From Volutella citrinella (lineage: Eukaryota; Ascomycota; Sordariomycetes; Hypocreales; Nectriaceae): a stretch of DNA of 64,000 bases. Location: assembly GCA_034401135.1 (NCBI GenBank), contig JAWZSP010000007.1, positions 62,001 to 126,000 on the forward strand. The letters run 5' to 3'. How positions within the stretch are numbered: the first letter of the stretch is position 1; every line of letters starts with the position of its first letter. The notes under the pieces are model-generated. The model was not told the DNA's origin, did no database searches, and was given only the letters and a program-made list of their open reading frames with translations. Both the position numbers and the translations under genes were made by a program. Shown here piece by piece: positions 15,011 through 64,000 of the stretch.

Positions 15011-15018
15011 TACACTGT

Positions 15019-15143: not shown

Positions 15144-15156
15144 TATATTATGTTAG

Positions 15157-16679: not shown

Positions 16680-16922
16680 GTTTACTTAGTATTTTAAATT
16701 AATAAGAATTTTCTTTTTTTAATCTTTTTTTATTTAAAAACTCTTTTTTTTATTTAATTAAACTATTAATTAATTTAGATTTTCTATATTTTATAAAATT
16801 CTTTTATTAAAAATTATATAATTTTTTACTTTTTATTTAAAATTAATTACCTTATAATAAGTTTTTATAAAAAATATTAATAATTATTAGTATTTATTTA
16901 AACTTATTATTTTTATTAATAA
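16680..16922. repeat. Direct repeat copy 2 (heavily RIP-mutated)
   Basis: Same-orientation copy of 15903-16153. Almost all C:G pairs of copy 1 are T:A here. The two copies flank about 525 bp of A/T-only sequence, so they could be remnants of long terminal repeats or of a tandem duplication. Confidence 0.8.
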
Positions 16923-17538
16923 AATAATTATATTAAAAAATAAAATAAATAAAAAAATAATAAAAATAATAAACTAGTTTATTAAGCTATATAAAAATAT
17001 ATAAATAGTATACTATTTATAAAATAAGGATATTTTATTAATATTCTAAAATAATACTATTAGATATATAAAAAGAGATAGAACTTTAAGCTAAGTAAAC
17101 TATACCTTAAGTAAGATATTCTAGCAAGGGCAGCTATCTACTTCCTGCACTTTACTTAAACTTTGGTACTTGCCTCGACCCAGGAGTCCCTACCTAAAGC
17201 TTACCAAAGTGGGGGCGAAGTTCCTAGGGTAAGGGCTCTAGATCTTTCTAACTACAGGGAATCTCGATAAACTGTGGCCAAGCTCACGATTAGGTGATGA
17301 ATGTTGCACACAGGCATGCGTCGAGCTTCTCAAGATCGAGGACAGGGCGAGCGCCTTGGACTCTGAGCAAGGACATGTTGTTTTAAGCACGATTCGTATT
17401 TATCAAGGTGCATACGTCGCCTTTGTTGAATAATATTCTACTTTCAATTTCGAGTGAAAAATTATGCATCATCGTCGCTTTTCAACACCACTACCTTCGT
17501 CCAAGTCTTGCACGTCCTATGCCTCCTAATGCGCCACC

Positions 17539-45608: not shown

Positions 45609-45632
45609 CCGGTCACTTTTTTTAACCGCCGG
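45609..45632. promoter_or_regulatory. Cluster motif site 1: CCGG-N16-CCGG
   Basis: CCGG at 45609 and 45629, 20 bp apart, with TTTAA in the spacer (TCACTTTTTTTAACCG). It lies 429 bp before the permease ATG and about 470 bp before the flavoprotein ATG. Same geometry as five other sites in this cluster. Confidence 0.6.
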
Positions 45633-45874
45633 TCCAAGGGCCGAGGCCTCTTGGGTTTGCTGACTGGTCATTCAAGGTCTCGCCATGATAACGGCCTAAG
45701 CTTGGAAGGGGTGAGCTGAGCAGGCGATAGCCCTTGGTGGTGAACGCCCCCGTCTTGGCCTTCCTTCAAATTCCCACGTGGGTCATGGGCTCGGAGCCGT
45801 ATGATGCGGGTGAAGTGAGGTGACCTGTTCTGTATCGCCCTCCAATTGTGGTTGGTTGGGAGCATTCCGCTCGC

Positions 45875-45898
45875 CCGGCCATTAAAATAAATCACCGG
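45875..45898. promoter_or_regulatory. Cluster motif site 2: CCGG-N16-CCGG
   Basis: CCGG at 45875 and 45895. On the minus strand the spacer reads TGATTTATTTTAATGG. It lies about 200 bp before the flavoprotein ATG at 46100. Confidence 0.62.
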
Positions 45899-46099
45899 TC
45901 CGTATCAGCGAACCGAACAACGACAGTACTGAAGACTTGACGGCGGATTGCACTCGAGTTTGTTACCGAGCGTAGATACTACTTATGATACAATTGCACG
46001 GGATTAGCCGATTTGATGAAGAGGCTCAACTGTTTGTCCTTACCAATTCCTCGTGACGATTCTGACCACTGGCGAAAAGCTTCACCACGAAACGCCCCT

Positions 46100-47909
46100 A
46101 TGCCCAAAATGGAGACAGTAGTGGTAGATGTTCTTGTATGTGGAGGCGGCATGTCTGGCATGGCCTGTGCGGCCGCTGCTGCAGAGTCCGGAGCCAAGGT
46201 ATTGGTGGTTGAGAAGCAAGCCCATTTGGGGGGATCTTCAGCCTACTCCGCAGGCATGTTGTACGTGTTCATACCATTCAGAAACCCCAAAGGAACACTC
46301 CAAGTCTTTTGATGCTAATTTGTTATTCTAGCTGGGCCCCCAAGACGTACGAAAGTCTTCGGTCGTGGGTTCCGGAGGGCGATGCTGATTTGCAGCGGGC
46401 ATGGATGAACGACTATCTCCCAGCTGTGGAGTGGATGCGGCAGAGTGGTATTCCAACTGCTGACAGGTTCGGTCCGATCATGACCATTGGTATGAGCGAC
46501 TCTGGCCTCGGCTTCGCATTCCTATACTAAGTGGTGACAATAGGTATTGGTTATCCCATCAAGATTTCTGAGCTGTACAAGCTTCACAACAAGAAGATCA
46601 GTGGCGGTGACACCAATTCGGCCATCTGGACTAATACCAAGGTCGTCAAGTTGCTTCAGCAAAGCCCAGAATGTGCCGGGTCTCGGGTCACTGGCGCCAT
46701 TGTCCAGCGCACTCTTCCTGGGTCGAAAGATGTCAAGCTTGTCGAGGTCAAGTCCAAGTTTGTCGTTTTAGCCACGGGAGGGTTCCAGGGTTCGCCTGAC
46801 CTAACAGCCACGTATCTTGGGCAAGGGCAAGACAATGTGTTTGTGCGGTCCAACTACGGCTCTGTTGGCGATGGCCTGAAACTCGCAATCTCTGCTGGTG
46901 CCGGGACGAGTCGCGGGATGGATACTTATTATGGACATCTGCTCGCATCGCCTCTCGACCACAAGCAGGTCGACCCGAAGGATTATCTGCCGCTGGCTCA
47001 ATATCGTATGTTTCACAGTTTTTTGTTACTCTCTATAACACGTTTCACGTCTAACCTGAATATCCAGAGAGCAAGTACTGTCTCTTGATCAACAAGGGCG
47101 GCAAGAGATTCACAGACGAAACTCTTGGTGATGAGATTGTGAACCAGGACTTGGCCAAACAGCCCGACCGCAAGGGTTATCTCATTTTCAGGTACGTCAT
47201 TTAGTTTTCACCTGCAGTAGCCAAGGAATACAATTGACACGGGTGCTAACACGTTCCTACAGCGAAGAGACAAGGGCAAAGTACTGTGTCTCTTCCATGT
47301 TCCCACACGCTGGTGATGTTGACCGACTGGCGAAAGCTCGCTCTCACGGAGCTCGGGTGGGAGAAGCAACTACTATTGCGGAGCTTGTGCAGACCCTGGG
47401 GGCATGGGGCGTTGACAAACTTCAGGCCCAGCAAACAATTGACCAGTATCATCGCGTCGTCGCACTTGGGGACAAGCCCATCTCCCTAGATGCGCCAGTT
47501 GGTCTTACTGGCCCGCCACCGGCACCACTTGTGGAGGGCAAGGGTCCTTTCTTCGCCATGGAAGTTCAGCCTTCGTAAGTTTGGCCTTTTGATTTTTCTT
47601 TTGATTTTTCTTTTAGGACGAACTATACTAAAATTCATCGACAGTATCACCTTTACGTATGGTGGCGTCTCCATTGACCCCAACGGCCATGCATTGACAC
47701 CTGACAAGACTGTTATCGATGGTCTACTCGTCTCCGGCGTCGATGGCGGCGGCTTCAGTAACCGTGGATACGCTGGAGGTCTCGCGCTGGCCTTCGTGAC
47801 TGGTATCTGGTCTGCTCGTACCGTGGCAAAGGAGCTAGGGTTGCCAGTCCCGTCTCTCCCACCAGCTGCCGCAAAGGATCTGGTGGTTCGTGAAGGAAGT
47901 CACCTGTAA
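46100..47909 (+). CDS. FAD_binding_2 flavoprotein dehydrogenase (fumarate reductase/3-ketosteroid dehydrogenase type)
   Basis: Model 46100-46260, 46332-46489, 46544-47005, 47068-47191, 47263-47574, 47645-47909, 493 aa, five introns of 54-71 bp, phase kept. The N-terminal dinucleotide-binding motif is 'VLVCGGGMSGMACAAAAAE' (GxGxxG at ~15-20) followed by 'VLVVEK', then 'LGGSSAYSAGMFWAP'. The FAD-contact segment 'VVLATGGF' lies in the middle and the C-terminal 'GLLVSGVDGGGFSNRGYAGGLALA' closes the FAD site. This family includes fumarate reductase, 3-ketosteroid delta-1-dehydrogenase and tricarballylate dehydrogenase, enzymes that insert or reduce a C=C next to a carbonyl or carboxyl. The exact reaction cannot be named. 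It is paired divergently with the permease. A Met at residue 4 is an alternative start. Confidence 0.88.
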
Positions 47910-48050
47910 AATACTGAGGGAATGTGAGATAGCGTAACTAGCACCGGTGGAAAAAAATGAGATAGATGTGATCTCATGTTTTAAATCCCTTGACGTAAAC
48001 TTGGAATGGAACAGATGCAACTCATTTGATGTCTCTCTCAATCCTGTAAG

Positions 48051-49178
48051 CTACAACTCCACCGGATGGCCATTACCAGAATCAAGGGCTTGAATAATAG
48101 CCTCACAAACTCTTACGGCAGCCAAGCCGTCTTCGCCAGAGCAAACCGGAGTCCCTCCACCTCGTGCTAGCTCACCAAGATGTTCAATCTGCCGCTCATA
48201 AGGATCACCGTGCTCAGACAGTACTGCCTCGTGAGATATGGGGCAGCTCCAACCAGCTTCAAGTCCACTCTTTGCAACATCTTCTTGACGGTAGGTCCAT
48301 AACAGACCGTCTGGAACACTCAAACTCCCACGTGACCCAAATAGACGGTAGCTGTCCACAGGCAGTCCAGCTTTGGCAATCATGACATTTTCTCCCGTAG
48401 CCGCCTCCCAGCCGTAGGGGCTAGGGACATTGTCACAAACGATGAGGGTTCCCACCACGCCATTCTCAAAATGTAGCATCACAGACGCACCCTCCTCTAC
48501 CAGATCATCGTCTGCCACAGAAGGATGCTCTCGACGGCGTATGATGTTCTGGGCCCACAAGCGTGTGATCTTGGATCCAACAAGGTAGTGCAACACATCA
48601 ATATCATGCACTAGGTTTGTCCACACCGGCCCGCCCCCTTGAGACCGGGCAGCCCGCCAAGGGGCTGTCGCGTAGTATCCATCCGGCTTTTTGCATGTCC
48701 ACAGACTGGAGACGGCGGTGAGATTGCCCACCGTGCCGGCTGTGAGGGCACGCTTCGCTGCGACAATTGGCGGCTGGAACCGTCGATGATGGCCGACCGT
48801 AATCGTACATTGTCTGTCCCTCGCAAGGGATAGCAGAGCGGCTGCGGACTTGGACTCGGTCGACAAGGGCTTTTCAACCATTATGACTTTTGGTTTGGCT
48901 GAGTCGAGGATCTCAGTCGCAACTTGTACGTGCAAACTGGACGGGACGCAGACAAGGTATACATCAGGCTGATACACAGCCAACAGGGCAGCCAAACTTT
49001 CAAAGTATGGCACCGAGAATTCGTCTGCTAGCTGTTTTCCCGATGGAAATGGGTCAACGATAGCTTGCAAAGTGCAAGTTGAGGAGTTGAGGAGCGTTTT
49101 CAAGTGCTCTCGGGCTATCGTGCCGCCCCCGACAATGGCAAAAGGCGACTTAGTATTGTTGGGTTCCACACTGTTCAT
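48051..49178 (-). CDS. Gfo/Idh/MocA-family NAD(P)-dependent oxidoreductase
   Basis: Single exon, 375 aa. The N-terminal Rossmann domain has 'FAIVGGGTIAREH' (nucleotide-binding glycines at 17-19), and the conserved dihydrodipicolinate-reductase-type 'EKP' is at 102-104. The C-terminal domain contains 'GGGPVWTNLVHDIDVLHYLVG', with the His/Asp pair typical of this family's active site. Members oxidise sugars, inositol and related cyclic polyols, so a cyclitol-like or sugar-acid substrate is possible. Its 3' end lies 141 bp from the flavoprotein gene's 3' end. The nearest cluster motif is about 600 bp upstream and may serve the next gene instead. Confidence 0.9.
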   Translation of the reverse strand: MNSVEPNNTKSPFAIVGGGTIAREHLKTLLNSSTCTLQAIVDPFPSGKQLADEFSVPYFESLAALLAVYQPDVYLVCVPSSLHVQVATEILDSAKPKVIMVEKPLSTESKSAAALLSLARDRQCTITVGHHRRFQPPIVAAKRALTAGTVGNLTAVSSLWTCKKPDGYYATAPWRAARSQGGGPVWTNLVHDIDVLHYLVGSKITRLWAQNIIRRREHPSVADDDLVEEGASVMLHFENGVVGTLIVCDNVPSPYGWEAATGENVMIAKAGLPVDSYRLFGSRGSLSVPDGLLWTYRQEDVAKSGLEAGWSCPISHEAVLSEHGDPYERQIEHLGELARGGGTPVCSGEDGLAAVRVCEAIIQALDSGNGHPVEL

Positions 49179-50064
49179 TTTGGGCTTGGTGTGGTTGGCA
49201 GATTGTCTGGTTGGTCTCGGTCAAGTCAAGGGTTGATGGAGTGACAGAGCATGCGGCGGATGTGAAGAGCAGAAAAGTAGGCACGGACACCAATCCCGGC
49301 AAGTTTTGGCGAGCCAATTTATCACGCACGAGAAAGCTGATGGGCTAATGATGACTCGCGCATCTTCAGCCATACCTATTGGATGGCAATGGAGACATGG
49401 TGACGCCGGGCCTGGCATCTATTGTCTGACGACCGGCCGGTCACTTAATCTAGATCTGAAAACATGCACTCGGAGCATGGCATCTCTGTATGGGGTTTCG
49501 CATTGATAGCAGAGCTAACCAGTAAGCTAGCTACCCAGGGATCATCCACTCACTGTCAAATTAGTGGCTTGTAGCTGCATCATCCACGGCCCACGTAGTT
49601 GCTGCGGGACACGGCCAAGATTGGGCTGGGGTAGCCCATCCTGGGGTCCGGGGAAGGAGTGAATTAGCCTTTTTGGGCTCAGAGAGCAATAAGGCAGTCA
49701 CTGATTACTGCTACCGGGGTATTGGAAATGCGGCTTGTGGGGCCCCAGGCGATTATCACACCCCTCTCACGCCCTCGGCATATTATTTAAAGCCCCGGGT
49801 GGCACAGAGCAATCACACCGACCCCGCAACCGGTCAGGCCTGGACTAGGGACTTGGTTCCAAGACTCTGGTACTCTTCTCATGCCGAGCAATTTGGAGTA
49901 GGATAATCTGCACATAAGTGCTGAAAATCAGGCCACGTGCTGGGCTCACAATAGCAGATTGCCTTGACAACTGGCAATCCTAGAGCCTCATCCCTTGCGC
50001 AGTCACCTTGTCTTGACCAATCATTGAATTGCCACTCCGTATTTTGCTTCTATTTGACGACATC
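49179..50064. promoter_or_regulatory. Divergent promoter region, Gfo/Idh and flavin oxidoreductase genes
   Basis: 886 bp without a gene. A G+C-rich stretch at 49610-49660 and 49735-49830 contains several CCGG and CCCC blocks, including the motif copy at 49775-49798. Confidence 0.5.
49775..49798. promoter_or_regulatory. Cluster motif site 3: TCGG-N16-CCGG
   Basis: TCGG at 49775 and CCGG at 49795, with spacer CATATTATTTAAAGCC. It lies 267 bp before the flavin oxidoreductase ATG. Confidence 0.6.
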
Positions 50065-51709
50065 ATGGCACCTGTCTCTTCAACATCCCGGACATTGGCC
50101 CAGGTGCGTGCTCGAAAATCATGACATAGCGAGAGAGACTTTGAATAACAATCGCCCCGAATAAATTAGCCCATCACGCTTAAGCTCTCGGGAAAGGTCA
50201 TCAAGAACCGACTCTATCGCACCCCTCTGAGCGAATACGCATCTACCTATGATGAAAACGACCCCGACAACACTGGTAGACCGCTTGACAAGTACCGGGA
50301 GCTCTATCAAGGTCAGTTGGCTACGTTGTTCCTAATCACGAGCCCCAAGTTCCATGTTAGCCATAATCTATGCCATTTCTCATGTTCTGCTGACGCCGTG
50401 AACTCACAGAAATTGCGGATGGTGGCGCTGGCCTCATCTGCTTCGGCAACATCCCGATTGACCGCAACAACCTCGAAAACTACAACAACGCAGTTCTCGA
50501 TCCCCGAAACCCGTGGGACCCTGTGGCTGCATTTGCTCCAGCCATAAAGGCCGCCAAATCCCGCGGCGCCGTCTGTCTTCCACAACTTCAGTTCCCCGGT
50601 CGCCAGGTGCCCGAATTCTTGAACCAGAATCCCCGATCTGCATCCAACGTGCAGCTGAAGCCATGTCTGAACAAGAAATATGGCAAGCCAACTCCTTTTA
50701 CATTGGATGAGATTGAAGAAATCACACGTCGCTATGTTTGGGCTGCTGAGGTTCTTGCCAAAGCCGGTGCCGATGGAATCATTGTGAGTGGACACCTGCG
50801 GTTCCCTCTTGCTTGAGACTTGGTAGCGTGTGCAGCTAACAGTGAGGCTCACTTAGATTCATGCCTCGCATGGTTACATTATGAACCAGTTTCTCTCTCC
50901 TCTCACCAATAAGCGTACAGACAAGGTAATGCTCCGATAGGATTATCACCTCAAGAGGCGATGAACTTGGCCAACAGCCGAAGGTTGACTCGGCTAACAT
51001 AACTTAGTATGGAGGAAGCCTCGAGAACCGCGCCCGCTTCATTCTTGGGATAGTCAATGCTATCAAGGCGAAGCTGCCCTCGGAAAAATTTGTCATCGCG
51101 GCCAAGTTCAACTGCCAGGATTGTGAGTCCAACTCGACCCACGTACGGCGGCCGTCTGCCGACCCCATCGGTTTCAGTTCAGCTTTCTAACCAGTTTCAA
51201 TTCTTTGCCTTAAATAGTCATCGAGGGGGGACAAAGCTTCGCCGAGCAATGTGTTGTGATGAAATGGCTCGAAGATGCTGGTGTCGACTTTTTTGACATC
51301 TCAGGCGGCACATACGAATCTCCTGCGTGGCGGGGCAACATCATGACGGAGCTTGCAGAGCGTCCTTCGCAAAAGGAGCGCGGAAGGTGAGGAGATAAAT
51401 GCCTAAATCTTGTTTCTAAAAATTTAGCGCTAATTCTTGGTTCTCGATAGCTATTTCATCGAATGGGCTCAAGAAATGAAGAAGGTCTTGGTAAGTGCTC
51501 ACGCAAATTTCGAGGGTTGGGCTCAGGCTAACTCAAGACAGTCGCGAGCTGTGATCGGGACTACAGGCGGATGGAGAGATGAAAACAAGATGGCGGAAGC
51601 GGTCTGGAAGAATGACATCGACATGTGTGGCTTGGGTCGTCCGTTGAGAGAGGATCCCGAGTTTGTGAACATGGTTCTCAAGGGAAAGACAACGCTGGCA
51701 AAGCTGTAA
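50065..51709 (+). CDS. Old-yellow-enzyme-type NADH:flavin oxidoreductase
   Basis: Model 50065-50103, 50170-50311, 50410-50783, 50857-50925, 51008-51122, 51218-51386, 51451-51490, 51542-51709, 371 aa, seven introns. The last intron (51491-51541, 51 bp) is a multiple of three and free of stops, so it could be missed; removing it joins 'MKKVL' to 'SRAVIGTTGGWR' as the family needs. FMN TIM-barrel features: 'NRLYRTPLSEYAS', 'HASHGYIMNQFLSP' (His187 and His190 contact the substrate carbonyl), 'KYGGSLENRARF', and the phosphate-binding 'TTGGW' and 'GLGRPLREDPEF'. Such enzymes reduce activated C=C bonds or oxidise enoyl-CoA-like and steroid-like substrates. The start ATG lies 13 codons before the first intron. 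Confidence 0.88.
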
Positions 51710-51925
51710 GATGCATAAGCTTGGCAATAAGTTAGGCGCAGAATACTCATAGCGTTGTCTGACTTGTTTGCACACTTGAATTGACTACTACTCTGAAGCT
51801 TCACTTGTTCTTCGTGATTTCGACTCCGAGCTGGAAGAGACCTAGCCGACACACAGCAGAAAGACTAGCACATCCAGGCAAATGAACCGATCGTGAAAAA
51901 TTTCAATATTTATCGCTGGCTCATG

Positions 51926-54703
51926 CTAAAATATATTGGCCACGCTCTCAAACGTACAGTCCAAGCCTTGTCCGTACCACTCTCGCATCATGTCAGCAAA
52001 CGCCTCCTGTGCCAGATCCTCGCCCCCAGGTGGCGTTAGACCATTGGATAACAGCGCATCAAAAGAGTAAGACGCAAGGTCGCCGTCCATATTTCCAAAT
52101 TGGGGAGGTTCCATCTCCAATAGCTGGTTTAGTTGTTCAGATGCTGTTGCTTGAGGATCTTGCATGGGTGCGCCGTTTCCAAGACCTGTTACGAGATCAG
52201 CCGTCTGCCTCAAGACGTTGATCCTCGTACGAAGGATACGAAACAGATGCTGGCCCAGAAGCGCAGCAATGCCGAATCGATGTGTTGGAACTGTCCCAGC
52301 CTTCTCAAGTTGCAGAGCAACCTCGGCCAAAAGCGCAAGGAGCTCGACCTCTTGTCCTGGACGATCGCCGTAGAGCTGGGGAAATAGCTTCAAAGCCAAG
52401 ATGGCTGAGTAGGAGATCATTGTCCAGGACGGTACTAGCATGCAGTACATGGGTTCTCCAATATCAGCCAAGTCTTTGACAGCCATTTCACAGCAGTTGA
52501 CGGCAGCTTCAAAGCAGTCCTCTCTAGTCGCGTCTGCATCGCTCTGCTGGACACTGCCCGTTCGGTCTCTGAGGGCAAAGCAGAGAGTCAACAGCCTTCC
52601 GTGCATGTAGACATAATGAAGATAGACGTAACGAATGGCAGCTCCTGTTGACATGTGGACTTCCGTTGGTTCCAGTGTCGTTAGAGATGCTACAGCGAGT
52701 GATAGTTGTGACTCTGAAACCCAGGTGCGTCGCCACGGATCCAGGACTGAATCAACCAGATCCCGTACCCAGTGCTTCTCACCGTGCTTGGTTGTCACGC
52801 CAGACTTGAGTTGGTGGTGCAAATTCGCCAAGTGACGACGGAGAAGGACGAGGGCGCATGTGTAGACATCGTTGGTGTCGGCCAGGGGATGCTTCCACCA
52901 ATCATCTATTCCGAGAGTTAGGTCTGCCTCTGGAAAAGGCCGTACTCTCCCGCAGGCCGCGCTGTGTGCCTGTTCCCAGAGAAGCATTCGAAGCCAAGTA
53001 CGCTCACGATTCCGTGCCAATCTGTCTTGGAACTCAGGTACCGTCCATTGGGTGCTGTTGGCAATTTGGGTTGCCCCGGGTGCCATTGATGCGGGAAATG
53101 GTGTAGAATCTGGATCCGCGGCGAGCTGATACTCTGGTTGGCAATAAAGCACATCATTTGCAGTAGCACTGGCGCGGGTTTGCTTTCGGTCAAGACCTAG
53201 AGCTGACGCCATGCCAAAAGCATATGCGGTGTAGACCCAGGATCGCTCGTCAGCCAACGTGTTTGTTGGAACGGCAGAGAGAAGGGAGATGTAATAGCCT
53301 TGTACGATTTCAACAGATTTGTATCCGTGTGTATGGACATGCTTGGAGAGCTTCTCGCCATGCAGGCGCAGTCTCTTGGCCACCGCGCCGGAAGCATGGT
53401 CGAATTGTGCGGATATTGCCAGTATCCAAGTGAAGAGGAGCGCTGATCGAGACCGCACAAACTCTGGAGTATGCATTGCGGCATCGAGAATTCCGTTCAA
53501 TGCGTGTAGGCGTTCGTAGTATCTAGACAAGGCGATTAGATGGATCAGATTAACGTGGAATATGTCAGATTGACAAATCTCAGCTTACATGGGAAAGAGA
53601 TGCTGAGCCTCTTCCATTGTTACCAGGCCCAGGTCAATAGGATCAACATCAGGGCCAACATCAAGTGCCTGGTTGACTGGCTGTGGCTTGAAGTAGTTCT
53701 TTGCATGTGGACTCATCTGGCTCCGTTTAGTCAACAATGAGCCCAGGGCGTGTTGTAGCGTCTTCCTGTCGAGTGAGAGTCCGAGGGAAACATAGCCGGG
53801 CCTCCCAAGGAGAGACGAAGCCACATCCAAGGGGCCTATCACGCCGGATACAAATGTGGAAGTGTTCCCTTGTGCAGATAGCGCGATTGATGAAGGGGAT
53901 GAAATGGAGTCTTCTTGGTCTAAATTATCGTCCATGGCCTGAGCCTCCCCGGATGCGTCTGCCAACAGTCCGAGGGGGTCGCTGACGGAGTTGTCGGTTT
54001 TCCATTGAGCAGTACTTTTGTGAGAATTGTTCTCTGCTAATGGAATTTCTGGACAATGCCCTGATATTGATACGGTCGCCGTCATCGAAGGATCCGGTGA
54101 TGTTGATGTCAGCATTGGAGAGCACGGTATTAGGTCGGTGTGCTCAGATGCTTCCACATCCATCGGCCCAGAGACCTCGGCAGGTAGCACCTCAGCTTCA
54201 ATAGTTGGCTCCAAGGAAGCCGACGGCGTGGCTAGGATTAATTCGAGAATCTGGCTCTCGATGGCTGACGGGCTGGAGGCGGATAGGACCTGCAACGTTT
54301 GCTGCTCCTCCTGGTTACCCCCGGCGCGAGCCTTGCGGACTTCTTTCTGCATCTGCCGTACGGCCTTGCTGAGGCCGCGATGACGACCTAGGGAGCCCGG
54401 TTTACGGCCGAGAGGGCGCTTCTGGGGTGTGTGGCACGGCCGATTGTTTCGTTGGCAGCGATCGCAGGGACGGTTTGCAGGGTCGGTCTCGGTCTCGGTC
54501 TCATTTTCGCTGCCACCGCTGCCTTGCCCCGGTCCTTGCTCTTGTGACTTTCCCATCCCGACACGGGTACATCGCATCTTGAGACGTCGACACGCCTCGC
54601 AAGCGGCGGGCATCGCGCTGCGAGACTCGGCTCGTGCGTCCACCATGATGAGGCGGGCCAGGAGTGTGTTGGATTTACCAATTTGTTGAAGTCGACCCAC
54701 CAA
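51926..54703 (-). CDS. Zn2Cys6 transcription factor with long zinc-cluster loop, candidate cluster regulator
   Basis: Model complement(51926-53522, 53589-54703), 903 aa, one 66-bp intron that joins 'HLFP' to 'IYYERLHALNGILD'. The zinc cluster is C35-x2-C38-x6-C45-x34-C80-x2-C83-x6-C90. The spacing on both sides is standard, but the loop between Cys45 and Cys80 is 34 residues, rich in Gly, Glu and Thr, where most members have about 5-12. A basic linker follows ('KRPLGRKPGSLGRHRGLSK'). The C-terminal half is a fungal-specific transcription factor domain ('RNRERTWLRMLLWEQAHS'). It should be nuclear. It sits in the middle of the cluster and is the natural candidate to bind the CGG-N16-CCGG sites (inference). 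A Met at residue 20 is an alternative start. Confidence 0.88.
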
Positions 54704-55467
54704 CGGACGAAACTCGGGAGGCCTAGAGGGCTTGAGACCTTGGGAGGCGTCTGCTACAGCGGCACACTCGGAAGTTCAAGGCGAAATGAATGAGTTGTAA
54801 CCCCTGATCAGACCAGGGTATAGCGACAAGGAGAAGTTGGCAGTCAAGAAGCCGCACAATTCAGGCAAGTGATGAGGGGGATGCCAAAAAGAAGGAGAAG
54901 AGATTCTGCAGTCTGGGGGCGCGGTAGCACTGGGGTGGAGAGATGAAGAGCGAGTGGAGTTTTCTACGGCAAGACTCGGTTATGTGGGCTACATGGGGTG
55001 CGGGGAATCCCTGAATAGCGGCCTGGGCCCATCAGCTAGCGCGGTGCGGGGCATGTGATGTTGATGCGGTTTATTCTTTTCGCTCTCAGCGTCACATTTA
55101 CCCACTGCTTTGTCTGCAAAGTTGGTCATGCGGCGTGGGCAGATCTGCCAATCGGTATCGATCGGGCGGCAGAGTTTGAGATGAGACCCATTGAGAGAGA
55201 TAAGACCCATGCCAGACCCCTGCAATTGCGACACCATGCTCACACTTGAGTATGCTGCCTCAGGGAGTCTGTGTGGGGGTCCGATGCCCGGAGTGACTGA
55301 GCGAGACTTCAGAACCACTGCTCGTCACTTTGGAGTTACAGCTCAGGCAGAAAAACAGCAAAATGCTTGTGGCTCCAGCAGTCAATTTATGAGCACCTTT
55401 CATCAAGGTCTACATTTACGTCATGGCCATTTATTCAGAGAGAACAAGTCCTTGCCGTTGACTCAAG
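54704..55467. other. Intergenic region, promoter of the regulator
   Basis: 764 bp between the regulator start and the dehydrogenase 3' end. No gene, and I see no copy of the cluster motif here. Confidence 0.5.
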
Positions 55468-56624
55468 CTAAACTCCTCGTCCCCCGTCTACAGCAATAGT
55501 AGTCCCAGTGATAAACGAGCTCTGGTCTGTGGCCAGAAACCACGCTGCATTGGCAATATCTGATGGTTGCGTAAGCCGTCTCATCGGCAGCATGTCTTGT
55601 ATTCTACGCTTCTTCTCTTCAGATTGCTCGTCATTGCCGATGCTCATCCGTAGCCTGTTTCGTGGTTAGGGAGATGCCTCGGTTCAACACAGCTCATCTA
55701 CTCACATAGAAGTCTCACCAACTGCAGGACAAATGCAATTGAAACGGACTGCGGGTGCATACTCGAGTGCCAGGGTTTTTGTAGCAACCTACAGGTCATT
55801 AGAGATGGAGTCTACCAAAGTGTAGAATCGTTAATGTACCTCAACGGCCGCCTTGGAGGCATTGTAAAAAGCGAATCCTGGTCGAGGGCGGGTGCATCCC
55901 GTGCTTTTTTAAATATCTGTCAGTGGACTGGTGCCCTTGGACCTCTGCTTTACTGCTCATACTGCAACTCACCTGGTAAGATTGATGAAAACTCCGTTGC
56001 CCTGCTTGAGCATGTGTTGGCCCACGATTTGGGCACTCAGAAATACGGGCTAACCATCATCAGTATCATCGTCTCCAGCTCCAGCTGACAGGTTGGAGTG
56101 ATACCTTGAGATTGACATTAAACACCTTGTCGTACTCTTGCATGCTCTTCTCCCAAAGTGGCTGCAAAATTCTCGGATTAGCACCACCTTCAAAAGTCAC
56201 GCAAGGCATTTACTCGTGGGTGCACAAACCGCTTGAGGATAAGTGAGGCCTGAGTACTTTAGCTGCTAATCCTTCAAGAGATCCATCACGAGGTATCTCC
56301 AGGACTCACCGGCATTGTTGATAACTACATCAAGCCTGCCATAGCTCGACTCGGCAAGGGACAACACTCGCTCCCAGGTTGCCTGACTGGAGACGTCTCC
56401 TTGCATGAATAGCAGTCTTTTGCTAGCTGCAGCTTTCGCTTTTTCGTTGCCTTTAGCCTCGTTGAGATCAATAAACACAACGAACCAGCCTTCATCGTGG
56501 AATCTGTCGACGATGGCAGCTCCAAAGCCATCAGCGCCACCTACGGACAATAATTAGTTGTTGGGGAAAATGGAGACATTTTGCAGGCAGGCATACCAGT
56601 GACGACAACAACCTTTGGCTCCAT
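55468..56624 (-). CDS. Short-chain dehydrogenase/reductase (SDR)
   Basis: Model complement(55468-55654, 55706-55788, 55840-55903, 55973-56049, 56105-56161, 56290-56540, 56597-56624), 248 aa, six introns. Classical SDR: cofactor motif T9-G10-G-A-D-G-F-G16, 'NNAG' at 84-87, catalytic Ser138, Tyr151 and Lys155 ('YNASK'), and the C-terminal 'SSFITGTTIAVDGGRG'. The intron at 56162-56289 has a weak GTGATG donor, but using it restores the exact family spacing between NNAG and 'DKVFNVN'. NAD(P)-dependent oxidation or reduction of a hydroxyl/keto group is expected. It shares a 417-bp promoter region and a motif copy with the TIM-barrel gene. Confidence 0.88.
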
Positions 56625-57041
56625 TTGTTTGACCGTGTTCTCGGATGCAGTGAGTTTGAGTTCCAATATCGTAAGGACTTTGTTGCCGATGAATCAGCAC
56701 CCAGGCGATAACGCTTCGATCTTCAATGCAACTTCGGCGTGCACTGTACTAGTTTATGGCTTACCTCCCTCCTCACTAACGTAGTACTTCCCCAGCTTCT
56801 AGCCCGACGCTATATTCTTGGCATAATTGCGGGGTTGCACCACATGATAGCCCGGCTCCTTTTTTAATGCCCCGGAACCCCCCAAGAACGCCACAGCCCG
56901 CAAAGCCCGGTTTGCTTCTTGTCGATGCGACATCTAATGACCCGATTAGTAGTGATTTAGCCAACTTGTGATAGATAGATTAGATAGCGCGTGTTATGCT
57001 GCCCAGCAAGAGACTCCCAATCACCCGCCACAGCCATTACC
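56625..57041. promoter_or_regulatory. Divergent promoter, SDR and TIM-barrel genes
   Basis: 417 bp containing one cluster motif copy (56852-56875). No gene. Confidence 0.55.
56852..56875. promoter_or_regulatory. Cluster motif site 4: CCGG-N16-CCGG
   Basis: CCGG at 56852 and 56872, with spacer CTCCTTTTTTAATGCC. It lies 167 bp before the TIM-barrel ATG and 228 bp before the SDR ATG, so it may serve both. Confidence 0.65.
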
Positions 57042-58245
57042 ATGACGACAGCCGAACCCTCCCGTATCCGCATTGCCATATGCACTAACTCGCTGGGAAA
57101 ATCTCAAGCCGGCCATGGTCTTGACAAAAAAATCAAGATCGCGAAGACGCACGGCTTTGATGGGGTAGAAGTTGCTATGGAATGCCTTGAGATCTACGCA
57201 GCATCGCCAGCATTTGCTCACTGCGGCTCCAGGCCCAATCGTCTGCGGGCGGCCGCAAAAGACATACACAACAAGGCTTCTGCTCTGCAATTGGAAATAA
57301 TTGCATTGAATCCATTGGGCGGGCTCGATGGCCTTGCCAAGCAAGAGGACCTCGAGGAGCGGCTCCAAGAAGCTGATCTGTGGCTCCAACTTTGCGAGTT
57401 GTTGGACGCACCAATTCTCCAGGTAACCACTTGTTTCATTCGAGACCCCAGACAGATTGGATGAATGAATCAGATACGAAAGGATGTATGTGGGTTCTAA
57501 TCATTATCACAGGTGACTTCATGTATGTATCCAATTCAGAAGACGCTCACAGCAGATCCCCAAAAAATCGCCGAGAATCTCAAGAAACTGAGCATTCTTG
57601 CCATGAAATACAATAAAATTGTGGCATATGAGGCCGTTTCCTGGGGTACCAACACCAACACGTGGCGGCAAATGCGAGAGCTCCTTCGTCTGGTCAATCT
57701 CCCCAACTTCCGTTACTGTATGGACACTTTCCACATCGGAGCTACAGAAGTGGGCGATCCTTTCAACAAGGAATCCGCTGTTCGACCCATGAGCCGTGAG
57801 ATCATAAAAGAGAGCATCCACGAATTGAAAAATACCATCAAAGAAAGCGACATCGGCTACATACAGTTGAGTGATGCCACTGTTGCCGACGAGCGACAGC
57901 AAGGGTATCCGTTCGCAGACTTGAAGCAACCTCCATTCATGACACAATCGCGAAACTGTCGAATTTTCCCATGCGAGCCGCAGCATGGCGGTACACTACC
58001 AGTTGAAGAAATCTTTCGGGCCTTTTATGAGCTTGGATACAGAGGCTGGGTGTCTATGGAGGTCTTTCACACCGACTTGTGGAAGGAAGACGCATCGTGA
58101 GTTCTACGTGTAAAACCGTCTTGATACGTGCGACTTACCAGAACTTGGACCTAGGATTCCCTCTATTTGGGCTAGCCGCGGAATGAGATCCTGGGAGACT
58201 CTGATCAAAAGATGCGTTGAGAAGGCTCCACGAGCCCGCATTTGA
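57042..58245 (+). CDS. 3-dehydroshikimate dehydratase-like TIM-barrel protein
   Basis: Model 57042-57422, 57513-58096, 58155-58245, 351 aa; introns of 90 and 58 bp keep phase. It belongs to the xylose isomerase-like TIM-barrel superfamily and looks closest to fungal 3-dehydroshikimate dehydratases (about 350 aa): 'SLGKSQAGHGLDKKIKIAKTHGFDGVEV' at the start, and metal-ligand strands 'VAYEAVSWG', 'RYCMDTFHI', 'GYIQLSDA' and 'WVSMEVFH'. Those enzymes form protocatechuate from 3-dehydroshikimate, but other members are isomerases, so the reaction here is open. It ends in Ala-Arg-Ile, a possible weak peroxisomal targeting tripeptide. It is divergent from the SDR, and the thioesterase gene converges on it. 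Confidence 0.85.
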
Positions 58246-58503
58246 TGGTATTATTTGCATTATCCTCCAGGAGCATTGGAAAGACGTTGAAAATTGAGTC
58301 ATCACTTTGAGGCCCGAATACGATTTAGCTTGTAGCCAGTTCAGTCATTTTGAAACACTCCTTTGTACTATCAATGACCTATTTTGTGCCTGAACGCGCT
58401 AATCAGCCGCAAGCTACAGGCGACTACACCCGCGAGATGGTGCTGCTGTTTTGTTCTGCTTCTCATTTGCGAGTCGGACGACGCCCTGTTTAATTCATCA
58501 GAC

Positions 58504-59679
58504 CTAGAATCGGAGGTGTATCACGATGATTCGGTACGTTACCTCTTGTGTGCATGTTGCTAGTAATGTCCCTTGCTTGGACCAAATCTTCTGCGTAATT
58601 ACTCCGCGACCGTTTCCTGACCATTGACTTTGCAGTTCCCCTAGCATCCACTCATCCGCCTTTGTTTCTTCGGGACACAAGAACTGCATGGAATGACTCA
58701 AGGTAACCATCATGTCTATCTGATGCCCATTGGCAGATACCTGCCCAGGCTCTCCGGACCCTGGAATACGCTCATGCACAGCAGACTTCTCCCATAGATT
58801 GGCGCCTCCAGCATCAAACTCAGTCAACGGGGGCCGTTTAAAGTCCCATATTCCGTGAACATGCGGAACAAGCCCAACCATGTAGCTGTCGCACATGTAC
58901 GCCATGGCAGCAAGTTGTGCCGCTTGTGTTGCGGACGGCGACATGGCTTGACTCGCCCTGAACCAATGATGAGCCTTCTTATCATGAGGATGTTTGCTCT
59001 CCGAGTTTGCAATGCCAACTTTTTTATTGACATAAGGTGCAGAGTCGTCAACTCGTTGTCGCGATCGATCGTCATCAGGTCTCGGGACTCTTTCGGGGAA
59101 GGATTCGGCATGCTTGACTTGAGGCCCCCGTCGTTGGCTTTTTCGCGCGAAGCCGATAGTGGCTATGAAGATGATCTTTGCATTTTGAAGCGTCTTTACA
59201 ACACGCGTCGCGAAGCTCCGGCCATCAGATATAACCTCGACATGGTAATAAAGGGTAGACAGAGGGTTGCCAGCGTTGACGAAGCGACAGTCCATGGAAT
59301 GCGCCAGAAAATCATCGGGGACTGTCTTTTGTGCAGCTTGTAGACACTGGCCGAGGAAAATGCCACCAAAGATACCACGAGCCTCTGGGGGAAGCCAGAG
59401 TGGGTTCTCATTGGCAAAGACATTGGGCTGGGTCGTGGATATTACGTGACATGATGACTCGAGGATAGAGATTGTCTGGGTAGTATTCGGTTTGTTTGGC
59501 ATGCATATGCCAATATCGTTCGATCCCATGGCGCTAGGAGCGATCGATCTGGGGAGATCTGGTGCGACCATTGGAAACAAGCGGGTGGTCAATATTGGAC
59601 AAGTCAGGAAATAGAGAGCAATAGAGAAAAACAAGGGCCAAGGAATAAGCTGGAGATTGCTAATTAGCTGTACCAGCAA
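58504..59679 (-). CDS. Acyl-CoA thioesterase II (TesB-type double hotdog)
   Basis: Single exon, up to 391 aa from Met at 59679. Mets at 59571 and 59529 are alternative starts, and the first ~35 residues are hydrophobic and could be an anchor or leader read-through. The N-terminal hotdog shows 'RGIFGGIFLGQCLQAAQKTVPDDFLAHSMDCRFV' and 'YHVEVISDGRSFATRVVKTLQ'. The C-terminal hotdog shows 'HSMQFLCPEETKADEWMLGELQSQWSGNGRGVITQKIWSKQGTLLA', with the usual Asp and Gln of the active site. It hydrolyses acyl-CoA to free acid and CoA. It is divergent from the acyl-CoA ligase over 368 bp with one motif copy, so activation and release are likely controlled together. The C-terminus has no peroxisomal signal. 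Confidence 0.87.
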   Translation of the reverse strand: MLVQLISNLQLIPWPLFFSIALYFLTCPILTTRLFPMVAPDLPRSIAPSAMGSNDIGICMPNKPNTTQTISILESSCHVISTTQPNVFANENPLWLPPEARGIFGGIFLGQCLQAAQKTVPDDFLAHSMDCRFVNAGNPLSTLYYHVEVISDGRSFATRVVKTLQNAKIIFIATIGFARKSQRRGPQVKHAESFPERVPRPDDDRSRQRVDDSAPYVNKKVGIANSESKHPHDKKAHHWFRASQAMSPSATQAAQLAAMAYMCDSYMVGLVPHVHGIWDFKRPPLTEFDAGGANLWEKSAVHERIPGSGEPGQVSANGHQIDMMVTLSHSMQFLCPEETKADEWMLGELQSQWSGNGRGVITQKIWSKQGTLLATCTQEVTYRIIVIHLRF

Positions 59680-60047
59680 TGAATGAGTGATCTGATGAGT
59701 CGTGGTCGTGGGATGGTAGGTGCGAATTCACTTCAGGTCCAAACTCTCTAGCACAGTCTCTCACTGTCAATGAGGGTTCTTGCCAATAGCCGGCTATCCT
59801 TGGAGCAAAGTCTCCGTTGCGGGGTCGGATGAGGTCCGTATTCCGGCTCCCAGAATAAATACCCGGGCTGCCGGGTGCCGGGCTCTGGCTTTAGTCCGTT
59901 CCAGCAGGCTCTCAAGGGCAATGTTGCACCGATATACAAAACTAGAAATCCGGGGTACCGTAGTAGCCAAGTAGTTGAGAGTCCCAGAATCCAACTAGTC
60001 ATTGCTTGCGTGTTCAAATTACCTTACCAGCAGACGTCATCGAAGCA
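59680..60047. promoter_or_regulatory. Divergent promoter, thioesterase and acyl-CoA ligase
   Basis: 368 bp containing one cluster motif copy (59843-59866) in a CCGG-rich block at 59840-59890. No gene. Confidence 0.55.
59843..59866. promoter_or_regulatory. Cluster motif site 5: CCGG-N16-CCGG
   Basis: CCGG at 59843 and 59863, with spacer CTCCCAGAATAAATAC; the first four spacer bases match site 4. It lies 182 bp before the ligase ATG and 164 bp before the earliest thioesterase ATG. Confidence 0.65.
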
Positions 60048-62291
60048 ATGGCCCCAATCTACGCCAAGCACAAAGTCCACTTGAGGCCGGACAGATCTGT
60101 GACTCAGTTTATGCTGGAAAATGTGTCGAATACTGATCCAGCAAAGATCATCTCTGAAGATACTCTTACGAGTAAATCTCTGACGTACGGGGGTCTGCGT
60201 GAAGATGCCTTCAAACTGGCCAACTCATTCAGGATGCGTCATGGGCTCGGTCGGGGAGACATCGTTAGCATCATTTCACGAAGCTGTGTAAGTTGCGGTC
60301 CCTCAAGCCTGGCACTTGTAGGTGAGATGGAAAGCTGACTGGCACTCACAGGTCGACTACATCCTTGCCACCCATGCTATTTGGGCGGCCGGCGGAGTCG
60401 TTAGGTAGAAAATCCTGGCCGTGAAATCACCTCAACTTGGCCAACTAACCGTATTGATACAGTCCAATCAACTTTGCCAACAGCACCGAAGAAATCAGCG
60501 CTGCTATCAAAACGATCAAGCCCAAATTTTTCCTGGTCGATGCTTCAGTCAAAGGAAAACTCCAAGATGCAATCATGTTGAGTGACTTCCACTACCAGCC
60601 TGACTCAATCTTGACCATGATCTCGCGAGTTGACGACCACGTTTTGGTGCGTAATAGCCACTCGTACATCATGGAAGATGATCTGACAAGAAGAATACAT
60701 ACAGTTCCCAGAAGATCTGATGGTCGGTGCAACCCGTATACCGGCAGAGGCGTATGTCCTTGACGGCCGGGATGCTCACAAGGAGTGCGCGGCCATCGTT
60801 CTATCCAGTGGCACGACCGGCCTGCCAAAAGCCGTGATGCTGTCGCACTACAACCTCTGTGCCATCGCAGAGGGCTTGAGAGGACACAATGGCGATAACT
60901 GGAGGGGCAAAGACCGAGAGATTTTCTTCCCAGTGAGTTGTCCTTTCGTCTTACAGAGTTTGATCAAGTTAGTATACTGACAAAGCTTTCTCAGCCTTGT
61001 AAGCTTACCATTGACCGTTTTAAAATTGCATCGATTGACAGGATCAGTATCACACATATACGGCTTATATGTATGCGCATTGCTAGGTCCGTGGATTGGG
61101 TCATACATCTGCCTGATGCATGCGTTCAATATGGATCAGTTCTGCATGGTAAGCCAGTTGATACTTGACGCGAGGTAAATTTGCTAACTATGGTGTTTTC
61201 AACGCGCAGCTCATGCAGAACAAACAAGCCACTCTTGCTCGACTTGTTCCCACTGTTGCGCAGGCATTGGCAAGGTCTGACATTGTTGGTCGGTACAAAT
61301 ACCCTAACCTAGAGTATTTTTCTTGTGCCGGGGCCGTTCTGAAGGTAAATACAACCGATATTCAACCATCCTCTGTGACAAGCGTCTAACACTCCTGTTC
61401 ACAAGCCTACCACTGCTTCGAGTCTTCGGGCCAAGTTTCCAGGCGTGAGCCTATGTCAAAGTGAGTGGATAGCCGTGGCTCAATCATTTGAGAAGAAAGC
61501 TGATAAGGTCTAGCTTATGGGTGCACTGAGCTGTCCTCTTGTGTCTCGCAGAGCGGCATCCGAGATGCCGGGGCTCCGTTGGTCGCTACAGGAACACTTT
61601 TGGCCAATATCGGAATCGTCTTTGTTGATGACCAGCTCAAAGAAGTGCCCGCTGGGAAGTCTGGTGAGATCTGTGTTTCCACACCAAGCATGATGATGTA
61701 AGTCTTTCGTTCATGGCTTGTTTGCATTTTGGGGGGCTAGCTCGCTAACAGTCGGGGCACAGGGGCTACAAGGACAACGAGGAAGCGACTCTGGAAAGCA
61801 TGCTAGCCCCTGGGTGGTATCGCACCGGTGACATTGGCTACTTGGATGCCAACGGATATTTGATCATTGTCGATCGGATCAAAGATGTCATCAAGTACAA
61901 GGGGTGAGTAGATCTCTTTGTCCCGGGTCCATGTCTGGTAGAGATATGCTAACTCCATACCAGATTCCAAGTCAGCCCCACAGAGCTGGAAGAGTTGATT
62001 GGCAGACATGAACAAGTACAAGACGTCGGAGTTGCCTCGGTTTGGTACGAGGATGAAGCCACAGAAGTGCCTCGTGCATATGTCAAGGCGGCCTCTTCTG
62101 TTCCAGTTGGCGAGTATAGTCGCCTGGCTAAAGAGATTGAGGACTTGGTGGCTGAGAAGGCCGCAGGCTATAAGAAGCTGCGAGGAGGTGTCAAGTTTGT
62201 CGACGGGCTCCCGCGAAATCCGACTGGAAAGCTTTTGAGAAGGGTGTTGAAGAAGATGGAAGAGGATGCACCCCTAAGAGCCAGGATCTAA
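60048..62291 (+). CDS. Acyl-CoA ligase (4-coumarate-CoA-ligase-like, AMP-forming)
   Basis: Model 60048-60287, 60352-60404, 60463-60646, 60705-60932, 60995-60998, 61048-61148, 61210-61344, 61406-61460, 61514-61697, 61763-61903, 61964-62291, 550 aa, phase kept throughout. Exon 5 is only 4 nt (CCTT); without it the next exon is out of frame, with it the conserved 'PPLSHIYGL' appears. ANL-superfamily motifs: P-loop SSGTTGLPK at 193-201, 'YGCTELSS', 'GWYRTGD' at 412-418, '[16 protein letters not shown]', and the catalytic Lys ~531 in 'NPTGKLLRR'. It activates a carboxylic acid to acyl-AMP and then acyl-CoA. It ends in Ala-Arg-Ile, like the TIM-barrel protein, a possible peroxisomal signal. The substrate is unknown. 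Confidence 0.87.
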
Positions 62292-62950
62292 TTAGTTTCT
62301 TTTCTGTCGCATCGTTTGATAGACCAAAGACAATTCAGGACTTCGGTGCAAGCACTTAGCGGGCTTCGGTGTGAACGTTCACTTTCTTTCGACTCCACTA
62401 ACTACTAACTAGTACTTGTACGAGTACGTTTCTACGTGATTTGAAAGAATCACCCATTTTTAGTTGAATTATAGTCAATTATGAGTTACCTCATCCCTCT
62501 CCTGAAATTTTTCAAAGTTGCACGATCGTATTTTGCTTATCTTTGGTTCTCCTTCCGCTTACCTCATGATGCGCGCCGCAAGAAGACAGTCTCCTGCGGT
62601 TGCTCCCCAGGGAACATGTCGGAAATTCCCAGCCCAGAAACGAGCCCAAGCGGATTGCCAAGTTGAGTATAGGCCTCCGGTCTGTTTGTGGCCCGGTGGC
62701 GGGGCTGGAGCCAGTTTAGGGTAGCAACATTCCCTCACAAGTTGGACGGGCAATTATTTAATGGCCCGGTTTCGGCTCTCCCATCTCAAACTACCGCGGC
62801 AATTCTCATGCGATTCAATAAGGAACCGCCAGCGACTTAAACGTATTCATTTATGATCTCGTCGATCATTGTTCTTTGTCTTCACCTCATCACCTCCACG
62901 TGCTCATCAAGTCAACCCAAAACAGCGTCACAACCCTAAACACCACCACT
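62292..62950. promoter_or_regulatory. Intergenic region, promoter of the racemase-like gene
   Basis: 659 bp with one cluster motif copy (62746-62769). No gene supported. Confidence 0.55.
62746..62769. promoter_or_regulatory. Cluster motif site 6: ACGG-N16-CCGG
   Basis: ACGG at 62746 and CCGG at 62766, with spacer GCAATTATTTAATGGC; a further TCGG follows at 62772. It lies 182 bp before the ATG at 62951, the same distance as site 5 from the ligase ATG. Confidence 0.6.
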
Positions 62951-64000
62951 ATGGGCGTTCTCAATGGCATCCATGTGCTTGAGTTGGCCGGCCTTGCCCC
63001 AGGCCCCTTTGCTGGACTCATGTTGGCAGACTACGGGGCCAGCGTACTTCGGGTGGACAGATTTACCCCCCCAGCAACTCCAAGCCCTGACACCCTGGTC
63101 AGAGGAAAGTCCTCCATCACAATCGATTTGAAAGAAGCCAAAGGAAGAGACCTATTTCTCCAGTTGGCCTGCAAGGCCGATGTGCTTATTGACCCGTTTC
63201 GTCCCGGCGTGTTGGAGAGACTGGGACTGGACCCAGAAACGGTGCTGCTCAAGTTGAATCCTCGGCTCATTGTGGCTCGCCTGACTGGTTATCGCCGAGA
63301 CGGAAAGTATGCAACTATGGCTGGCCATGACATTAACTACCTTGCGGTCAGCGGCGTTCTGGACATGCTCGGACCAGCTGATCGCGTTGAGCCAGCCGGT
63401 CGGCCACTGCCACCAAGTCCACCGGGCAACATTTTGGGAGACTTTGCTGGCGGTGGGCTCATGTGCGTGGTTGGAATATTGCTTGCACTTGTCCATCGTG
63501 GTCGAACGGGCCAGGGCCAGGTTGTAGGAGCCAACATGGTCGATGGTGTATCCTACCTGGCGACGGCACCGCGACAATCGCAGAAAATACCTGGTCAGTG
63601 GGACATGCCACGAGGTCAGAATCTCACAGATGGAGGATGCCCTTACTATCGAGTCTACGAATGTCGCAATGACGGGAAATACATGGCCGTTGCTTCACTG
63701 GAGCCTCAATTCTTCGCCGCTCTATGCAAGGGTCTGGAGATAAGCCCCAAGGATTGGGATGGCATTGCCAGGGACGACCGAAAAGCCTGGCCCAAGTTGA
63801 AGCGAGTTCTGGAGACGAAGTTCAGATCCAAGACCCGCGAAGAGTGGGAGCGCATCTTTGATGGCACAGATGCCTGTTGTACTCCGGTGCTATCTCACGC
63901 CGAACTCGAAGCTTTTGGGGACGAACAGCGTTCAGCTGTGCAACTGAGCAAAACCCCAGGCGCCAGGATTGGGTTCCCTGAACCTATTGTCACCTTACCT
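62951..64000 (+). CDS. Alpha-methylacyl-CoA racemase/CaiB-BaiF type III CoA-transferase family (3' end outside window)
   Basis: Open from ATG 62951 to the window end, 350 codons, no stop. The N-terminus '[33 protein letters not shown]' is the family's Rossmann start. The active-site region '[14 protein letters not shown]' puts His at residue 126, and '[24 protein letters not shown]' supplies Asp164; these match the His/Asp pair of alpha-methylacyl-CoA racemase rather than the lone Asp of formyl-CoA transferases. '[11 protein letters not shown]' follows. Racemases of this type interconvert 2-methylacyl-CoA epimers; close relatives move CoA between acids. Family length is about 380-400, so only a short C-terminal part, perhaps with a targeting signal, is missing. 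Confidence 0.88.

What the first reader, a model, noticed from the sequence alone, without database searches (positions are those of the whole stretch)
45609..62769. Six copies of a fixed-spacing motif, (Y/A)CGG-N16-CCGG, in cluster promoters
Sites at 45609, 45875, 49775, 56852, 59843 and 62746 each have a CGG-type half-site and a CCGG exactly 20 bp apart (start to start). The 16-bp spacers are A+T-rich: five of six contain TTTAA, the sixth AATAAAT. All lie in intergenic DNA between 164 and about 470 bp from a start codon, and two sit in divergent promoters where one site can serve two genes. Paired CGG/CCG triplets at fixed spacing are the usual form of Zn2Cys6 dimer sites (Gal4: CGG-N11-CCG), but N16 is not a spacing I know for a characterised factor. 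By rough base-frequency reasoning only about two such matches would be expected by chance in 64 kb, so six in 18 kb of promoters stands out. I could not scan the rest of the window exhaustively.
Basis: partly seen in the sequence, partly recalled or inferred. Interest (0 to 1): 0.86.

Follow-up and report, generated by a model that had tools for sequence, protein, structure and literature searches.

The report
Shared control site of fungal cluster
A fungal gene cluster, probably for breaking down an organic acid, carries the same two-part DNA tag in every promoter except that of its own regulator gene; the tag is very rare elsewhere in the genome, so it is probably where the cluster's own switch protein binds, which remains to be tested.

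Summary
The six sites are real and at the stated positions. The A/T-rich spacer is decisive. CGG-N7-W6-N3-CCGG (spacing 16) has 34 matches in the 45.1-Mb genome, 7 of them (the six sites) in this 17 kb; spacings 15 and 17 give 19 and 27, none in the cluster. A shared orientation gives CCGG-NN-C-WTTAAAWAA-N4-CCGG; at up to 2 mismatches, 5 of 7 genome matches are here, but site 59843 does not fit it.

By my gene models the sites lie in all five promoter regions of nine structural genes and are absent from the regulator's own promoter. Three have a second element, TTGCGGGGTYG, 17-23 nt away and pointing at the site. The regulator's finger-to-helix linker has invariant length and Gly/Arg positions in 39 of 39 aligned sequences.

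Best reading: pathway-specific Zn2Cys6 dimer sites. N16 is not unprecedented: the yeast oleate element allows N14-18. Binding, and conservation in orthologous promoters, could not be tested here.

The parts
45609..45632 (-). N16 site 1, CCGGCGGTTAAAAAAAGTGACCGG (minus strand), MFS/FAD divergent promoter
   Evidence: fits the oleate-element consensus on the minus strand
45875..45898 (+). N16 site 2, CCGGCCATTAAAATAAATCACCGG, same divergent promoter, 201 bp before the FAD gene
   Evidence: fits the oleate-element consensus on the plus strand
49775..49798 (-). N16 site 3, CCGGGGCTTTAAATAATATGCCGA (minus strand), Gfo/OYE divergent promoter
56852..56875 (-). N16 site 4, CCGGGGCATTAAAAAAGGAGCCGG (minus strand), SDR/TIM divergent promoter
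59843..59866 (-). N16 site 5, CCGGGTATTTATTCTGGGAGCCGG (minus strand), thioesterase/ligase divergent promoter; weakest core, not found by the consensus search at 3 mismatches
62746..62769 (-). N16 site 6, CCGGGCCATTAAATAATTGCCCGT (minus strand), promoter of the racemase-like gene
49819..49829 (-). second element TTGCGGGGTCG, 23 nt from site 3 and pointing at it
56827..56837 (+). second element TTGCGGGGTTG, 17 nt from site 4 and pointing at it
59817..59827 (+). second element TTGCGGGGTCG, 18 nt from site 5 and pointing at it
51926..54646 (-). candidate regulator: Zn2Cys6 protein, two exons 51926-53522 and 53589-54646 in my model; no N16 site in its own promoter
   Evidence: Fungal_trans 20 bits, below its cut-off of 23
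42741..45180 (-). MFS transporter, rough gene model with 13 exons; 3' end uncertain
   Evidence: MFS_1 53.1 bits
46100..47909 (+). FAD_binding_2 oxidoreductase (fumarate reductase / 3-ketosteroid dehydrogenase superfamily)
48051..49178 (-). Gfo/Idh/MocA dehydrogenase; relatives labelled QutH by some sources
50065..51709 (+). old-yellow-enzyme-type NADH:flavin oxidoreductase
55468..56624 (-). short-chain dehydrogenase; exon structure only roughly modelled
57042..58100 (+). xylose-isomerase-like TIM barrel, distant to 3-dehydroshikimate dehydratase
58504..59571 (-). acyl-CoA thioesterase (4HBT_3/4HBT_3C)
60048..62291 (+). AMP-binding acyl-CoA ligase
62951..64000 (+). alpha-methylacyl-CoA racemase-like CoA-transferase family III gene, runs off the window

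Best explanation
The six sites are binding sites of a dimeric, pathway-specific Zn2Cys6 regulator, most likely the cluster's own gene product at 51926-54646. Each subunit would read one CGG in the inverted pair CGG-N16-CCG, and the A/T-rich core would be read or bent between them, so that one site switches on the genes on both sides of a divergent promoter. Shown: presence, spacing specificity, near-exclusivity to this cluster in the genome, placement in all five structural-gene promoters (by my gene models) and not in the regulator's promoter. Inferred: that a protein binds them, that it is this regulator, that it acts as a dimer and as an activator, and that the half-sites are read as an inverted repeat.
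For: Spacing-specific and cluster-specific: 7 of 34 genome matches (six sites) in 17 kb at N16, 0 of 19 at N15, 0 of 27 at N17; outside counts are alike (27, 19, 27), so there is no general genome-wide motif to explain it. Consensus CCGGNNCWTTAAAWAANNNNCCGG: 5 of 7 genome matches with up to 2 mismatches are here. Sites 166-467 bp before a start codon in five of five structural-gene promoter regions, none in the 0.8 kb before the regulator. A Zn2Cys6 gene lies in the middle of the cluster. Its neighbourhood is old: of 17 named species that I found by eye in both the regulator list and the Gfo list, 14 show the same longest-contig length for the two proteins, and in 9 the locus numbers differ by only 2-3 (2 in the window); two Penicillium records fuse the same SDR to the regulator. 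Finger-to-helix linker of one length (24 letters from last Cys to Lys) with invariant Gly/Arg positions in 39 of 39 aligned sequences, as expected of a DNA-touching part with fixed geometry.
Against: No binding or expression data. No orthologous promoter could be read. Direct CGG-N17-CGG is equally frequent in the five promoters. Site 59843 fits the spacing and the W6 block but not the finer consensus. 27 matches of the strict N16 pattern lie outside the cluster, one of them (C2:4383930) a close look-alike beside unrelated genes. The looser CGG-N16-CCG with any A/T run of 6 also occurs once in each of L001 (2643) and L003 (7212), next to the cluster. The regulator's zinc-cluster half has a long loop of 34 residues, gave no Pfam Zn_clus hit, no relative in the PDB, and its Fungal_trans match is below the cut-off. 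In 3 of the 17 species the two genes were on contigs of different length.
Confidence: 0.78

Rival explanations
1. The sites bind a different zinc-cluster factor encoded elsewhere (for example a carbon-source or fatty-acid regulator), which controls the cluster from outside; the in-cluster gene has another site or role.
For: The in-cluster regulator was never shown to bind them, and its own promoter has none. The yeast oleate element, bound by Pip2p-Oaf1p, covers N14-18 and 2 of 6 sites fit its full consensus. The cluster has a CoA ligase, a thioesterase and a racemase-like gene, compatible with acyl-CoA metabolism.
Against: A global factor should have many targets, but strict N16 matches outside the cluster (27) are no more numerous than N15 (19) or N17 (27) matches. 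4 of 6 sites fail the oleate consensus.
Confidence: 0.12
2. The A/T core is a core-promoter (TATA-like) or nucleosome-excluding element, and the flanking CGG/CCG pairs are incidental.
For: Cores such as TATTTAAA and AATAAATA look TATA-like and lie 166-467 bp before start codons.
Against: Does not explain exact 16-bp spacing of the GC ends in six of six sites, nor why other spacings around A/T runs are absent. One element could not serve as TATA box for both arms of four divergent promoters.
Confidence: 0.04
3. Chance or common descent by sequence duplication.
For: The bare pattern is only about twice the shuffle mean in the window, and the sites were chosen by eye.
Against: Flanks of the six sites are unlike each other, so they are not copies of a repeat; six sites where 0.010 are expected at the outside genome rate, although post hoc.
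Confidence: 0.03

Closest known systems
Oleate response element (ORE) of Saccharomyces cerevisiae, bound by Pip2p-Oaf1p
   Same: Inverted CGG/CCG with 14-18 bases between, so 16 is inside its range; acts in both directions; next to a second, GC-type element (Adr1 site) in the SPS19 promoter (passages of PMC2784042).
   Different: Only 2 of 6 sites fit CGGN3TN(A/R)N8-12CCG; here the spacing is exactly 16 in all six and the core is A/T-rich in all six; confined to one cluster rather than spread over peroxisomal genes (spread: recall).
qa-1F site of Neurospora crassa and Otf1p site of Candida parapsilosis (quinate / hydroxyaromatic clusters)
   Same: Pathway-specific Gal4-type regulator of a carbon-acid catabolic cluster with an inverted site and A/T-rich interior: GGATAATCGATTATCC; GGRN10WCC (passage of PMC8929692).
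   Different: GGA/TCC half-sites and a 10-bp spacer instead of CGG/CCG and 16.
Gal4-type sites in general (Gal4 CGG-N11-CCG, AmyR CGGN8(C/A)GG)
   Same: Two CGG-type triplets at a spacing fixed per factor (AmyR motif: passage of PMC8419926; Gal4: recall).
   Different: Spacing 16; palindromic CCGG ends in four of six sites; A/T core in six of six.

Membership tests
Zn2Cys6 dimer site (inverted CGG) | two CGG triplets, inverted, at one fixed spacing | tested here: met
   six of six CGG-N16-CCG; but the direct reading CGG-N17-CGG is equally met
Zn2Cys6 dimer site (inverted CGG) | site recurs in co-regulated promoters beyond chance | tested here: met
   7 of 34 genome matches in the cluster; neighbouring spacings none
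Zn2Cys6 dimer site (inverted CGG) | bound by a zinc-cluster protein | not testable with these tools
   no binding data; a Zn2Cys6 gene is in the cluster
Zn2Cys6 dimer site (inverted CGG) | half-sites and spacing conserved in orthologous clusters | not testable with these tools
   no fungal DNA collection; only proteins could be compared
Oleate response element (Oaf1/Pip2) | CGGN3TN(A/R)N8-12CCG | tested here: not met
   2 of 6 sites fit
Zn2Cys6 regulator (for the protein at 51926-54646) | CX2CX6C...CX2CX6C zinc cluster | tested here: met
   CEACRRLKMRC ... CDRCQRNNRPC read from the window and aligned with 38 relatives; loop of 34 residues is long, no Pfam Zn_clus hit for the window protein and 20.4 against a cut-off of 21 for P0001
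Zn2Cys6 regulator (for the protein at 51926-54646) | Fungal_trans middle homology region | tested here: inconclusive
   20 bits against a cut-off of 23
CreA/Mig1-type repressor site (second element) | SYGGRG core (recalled) | tested here: met
   TTGCGGGGTYG contains GCGGGG; the hexamer is too short to assign the factor

The most novel reading that the evidence does not exclude
The regulator founds a long-spacer class of zinc-cluster proteins: its fixed-length Gly/Arg-rich linker (GR[KR]xGxxGRYxGxEK) lies in the minor groove of an obligatory A/T core and so sets the 16-bp spacing, with a second factor at TTGCGGGGTYG completing a composite, bidirectional control element that has governed this cluster since before Eurotiomycetes and Sordariomycetes parted.
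Probability: 0.25. Interest if true: 0.68.

Novelty: new member of a known kind. Interest (0 to 1): 0.5.

Why it matters
It gives a precise, testable binding site for a widespread but uncharacterised fungal regulator and so a handle on a conserved catabolic cluster whose substrate is unknown. If the A/T core and the invariant linker prove to go together, it would bear on an old question: how zinc-cluster proteins that all read CGG triplets choose their spacing.

Tried and rejected
(1) The bare pattern as evidence: rejected. (2) An unlinked regulon: the best outside look-alike (C2:4383930, L004:4931) lies just behind an MFS gene and before an unrelated Zn2Cys6 gene; I take it as chance among 27 outside matches, not proven. 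Two further matches of the oriented pattern (C2:123496, C8:572447) were fetched as L005 and L006 but their genes were not annotated. (3) A second copy of the regulator in the genome: none, only three partial weak matches, best 36% over 225 residues. (4) Structure: AlphaFold model of the relative P0001, mean pLDDT 54.1 with the linker region below 50, so only the helix at 77-88 was noted; Foldseek against the PDB gave no match with E up to 0.001, best 0.085 to a CBF3 subunit. (5) Substrate of the pathway: family searches point to a carboxylic acid handled as CoA thioester, with weak hydroaromatic hints; no paper describing this cluster turned up in searches, and exact strings for CGG-N15/16/17-CCG gave no paper. 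The library holds open-licence papers only. (6) A broad motif hunt in the five promoters gave TTGCGGGG in four of five (shuffle mean for 8-mers shared by four: 0.01); several other 8-mers shared by three are at chance level (5 against 2.7).
Full report
What is there. The window is C7:62001-126000 of a 45.1-Mb, 26-contig genome with intron-bearing genes; the nearest relative of the regulator is from Sarocladium strictum (50% identity), so it is a filamentous ascomycete, species unknown. The right-hand 20 kb hold, in my own gene models (none checked against transcripts), an MFS transporter (-), a FAD_binding_2 oxidoreductase (+), a Gfo/Idh dehydrogenase (-), an OYE-type reductase (+), the Zn2Cys6 gene (-), an SDR (-), a TIM-barrel protein (+), an acyl-CoA thioesterase (-), an AMP-binding ligase (+) and an alpha-methylacyl-CoA racemase-like gene (+) (families).

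The sites. All six are as described. The bare pattern is not impressive: 12 matches against 6.3, and 6341 genome-wide, half of its backwards control. What sets the six apart is the A/T spacer. In the window, CGG-N16-CCG with an A/T run of at least 6 occurs exactly six times; no other spacing from 4 to 27 exceeds 2. Genome-wide, CGG-N7-W6-N3-CCGG has 34 matches, 7 of them in the cluster (45875 counts on both strands); the backwards control has 63, so the pattern is not enriched as such. The same pattern with spacing 15 has 19 and with spacing 17 has 27, none in the cluster. With only CGG and CCG required the count is 119 (listing capped at 100; nine of the listed ones are the six sites). The outside rate predicts 0.010 sites in 17.2 kb. 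I chose the W6 position after seeing the sites, so the formal Poisson value should not be quoted as a probability; the 1000 simulations, maximised over spacings and with the A/T run anywhere, never exceeded 3 against 6 observed.

Orientation and core. If five sites are read on the minus strand and 45875 on the plus strand they align as CCGG-NN-C-WTTAAAWAA-N4-CCGG. Columns 1-4, 9, 11 and 21-23 are invariant. At up to 2 mismatches 5 of 7 genome matches are these sites; at 3 there are 35, against 76 for the backwards control; 59843 is not found. The A/T core floats by about a base while the ends do not, which speaks for the ends being the fixed contacts. Since CCGG is its own reverse complement, inverted N16 and direct N17 are both present in five of five promoters, everted N18 in four.

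Placement. Distances to start codons are 428/467, 694/201, 596/266, 227/166, 271/181 and 181 bp. All nine structural genes share or own at least one site; the regulator's promoter has none, even with one half-site mismatch and an A/T run of 5. This is the pattern expected if the regulator is made at a basal level and acts on the rest.

Second element. The 8-mer TTGCGGGG is in four of five promoters. The longer TTGCGGGGTYG has 59 matches in the genome (46 in the backwards control, so no general enrichment), 3 of them beside sites 49775, 56852 and 59843, at gaps of 23, 17 and 18 nt and always pointing at the site. A fourth window match is at about 31930, outside the cluster. Sites 45609, 45875 and 62746 lack it nearby. 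It contains the CreA core SYGGRG (recalled), which would suit catabolite repression, but that is inference; GCGGGG occurs 8 times in the cluster's intergenic DNA against 1.8 expected from the window, two of them before the regulator.

Regulator. 136 relatives at E up to 0.001, 120 listed. I aligned 38 of the 120, chosen for near-full length, with the window's exon 1. Four of the 38 lack the first half of the zinc cluster. From the last cysteine to a conserved lysine all 39 have 24 letters, and G65, R66, G69, G72, G76 and K79 (P0001 numbering) never vary. The mean column entropy of the linker core (0.68) is close to that of the middle homology region (0.61) and far from the loop inside the zinc cluster (2.68). 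A conserved linker of fixed length is a natural candidate for what sets the 16-bp distance and touches the A/T core; no structure supports this yet.

Conservation of the cluster. Reading the lists by eye, 17 named species occur in both; in 14 the two proteins share the same longest-contig length, in 9 of these the locus numbers differ by 2 or 3; in Aspergillus ambiguus, A. floccosus and A. insuetus the contig lengths differ, and A. nanangensis has one linked and one unlinked pair. Two Penicillium records are fusions of the SDR and the regulator. So the neighbourhood is old, but whether the sites are old could not be asked: no collection with fungal DNA was at hand.

Comparison. The Pip2p-Oaf1p element allows 14-18 bases (passage of PMC2784042), so 16 is not a new spacing as such; 2 of 6 sites meet its full consensus. 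Otf1p and qa-1F show that regulators of hydroaromatic catabolic clusters use inverted sites with A/T-rich interiors (passage of PMC8929692), with other half-sites and spacing.

Verdict. A well-supported, cluster-specific regulatory site of a known kind, with an unusual combination of long fixed spacing and A/T core, next to a regulator whose linker invites a structural test.

Noticed in passing
window 14200-17100: Very A+T-rich stretch (GC 0.27-0.35) with repeated LTR-like motifs (GTGTATTAGCGTCAGGTTCTAAC and its complement); looks like a transposon decayed by RIP.
   Followed up: no
L001:759-2116, 2699-4500, 4938-6845 (C7 just right of the window): Directly beyond the cluster lie a sugar transporter, another Zn2Cys6-type gene and an alpha-L-rhamnosidase, perhaps a second, glycoside-related cluster.
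   Followed up: partly
L001:2643-2664 and L003:7212-7233: Looser CGG-N16-CCG matches with an A/T run of 6 but without CCGG ends, one on each flank of the window; the first is about 35 bp before the neighbouring Zn2Cys6 gene.
   Followed up: no
L004:4931-4952 (C2:4383931): CCGGGCATTAAATATACTGGCCGG, the best look-alike outside the cluster, between an MFS gene and an unrelated Zn2Cys6 gene, followed by TTGCGGGG pointing away from it.
   Followed up: partly
C1:4449719 and C1:5165375: The same 22-mer CGGCCATTTATTTTTCGACCCG occurs twice on one contig, possibly a repeat.
   Followed up: no
regulator, residues between third and fourth cysteine: The window protein has 34 residues in the zinc-cluster loop, rich in Gly, Gln, Glu and Thr, where P0001 has 15.
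   Followed up: no
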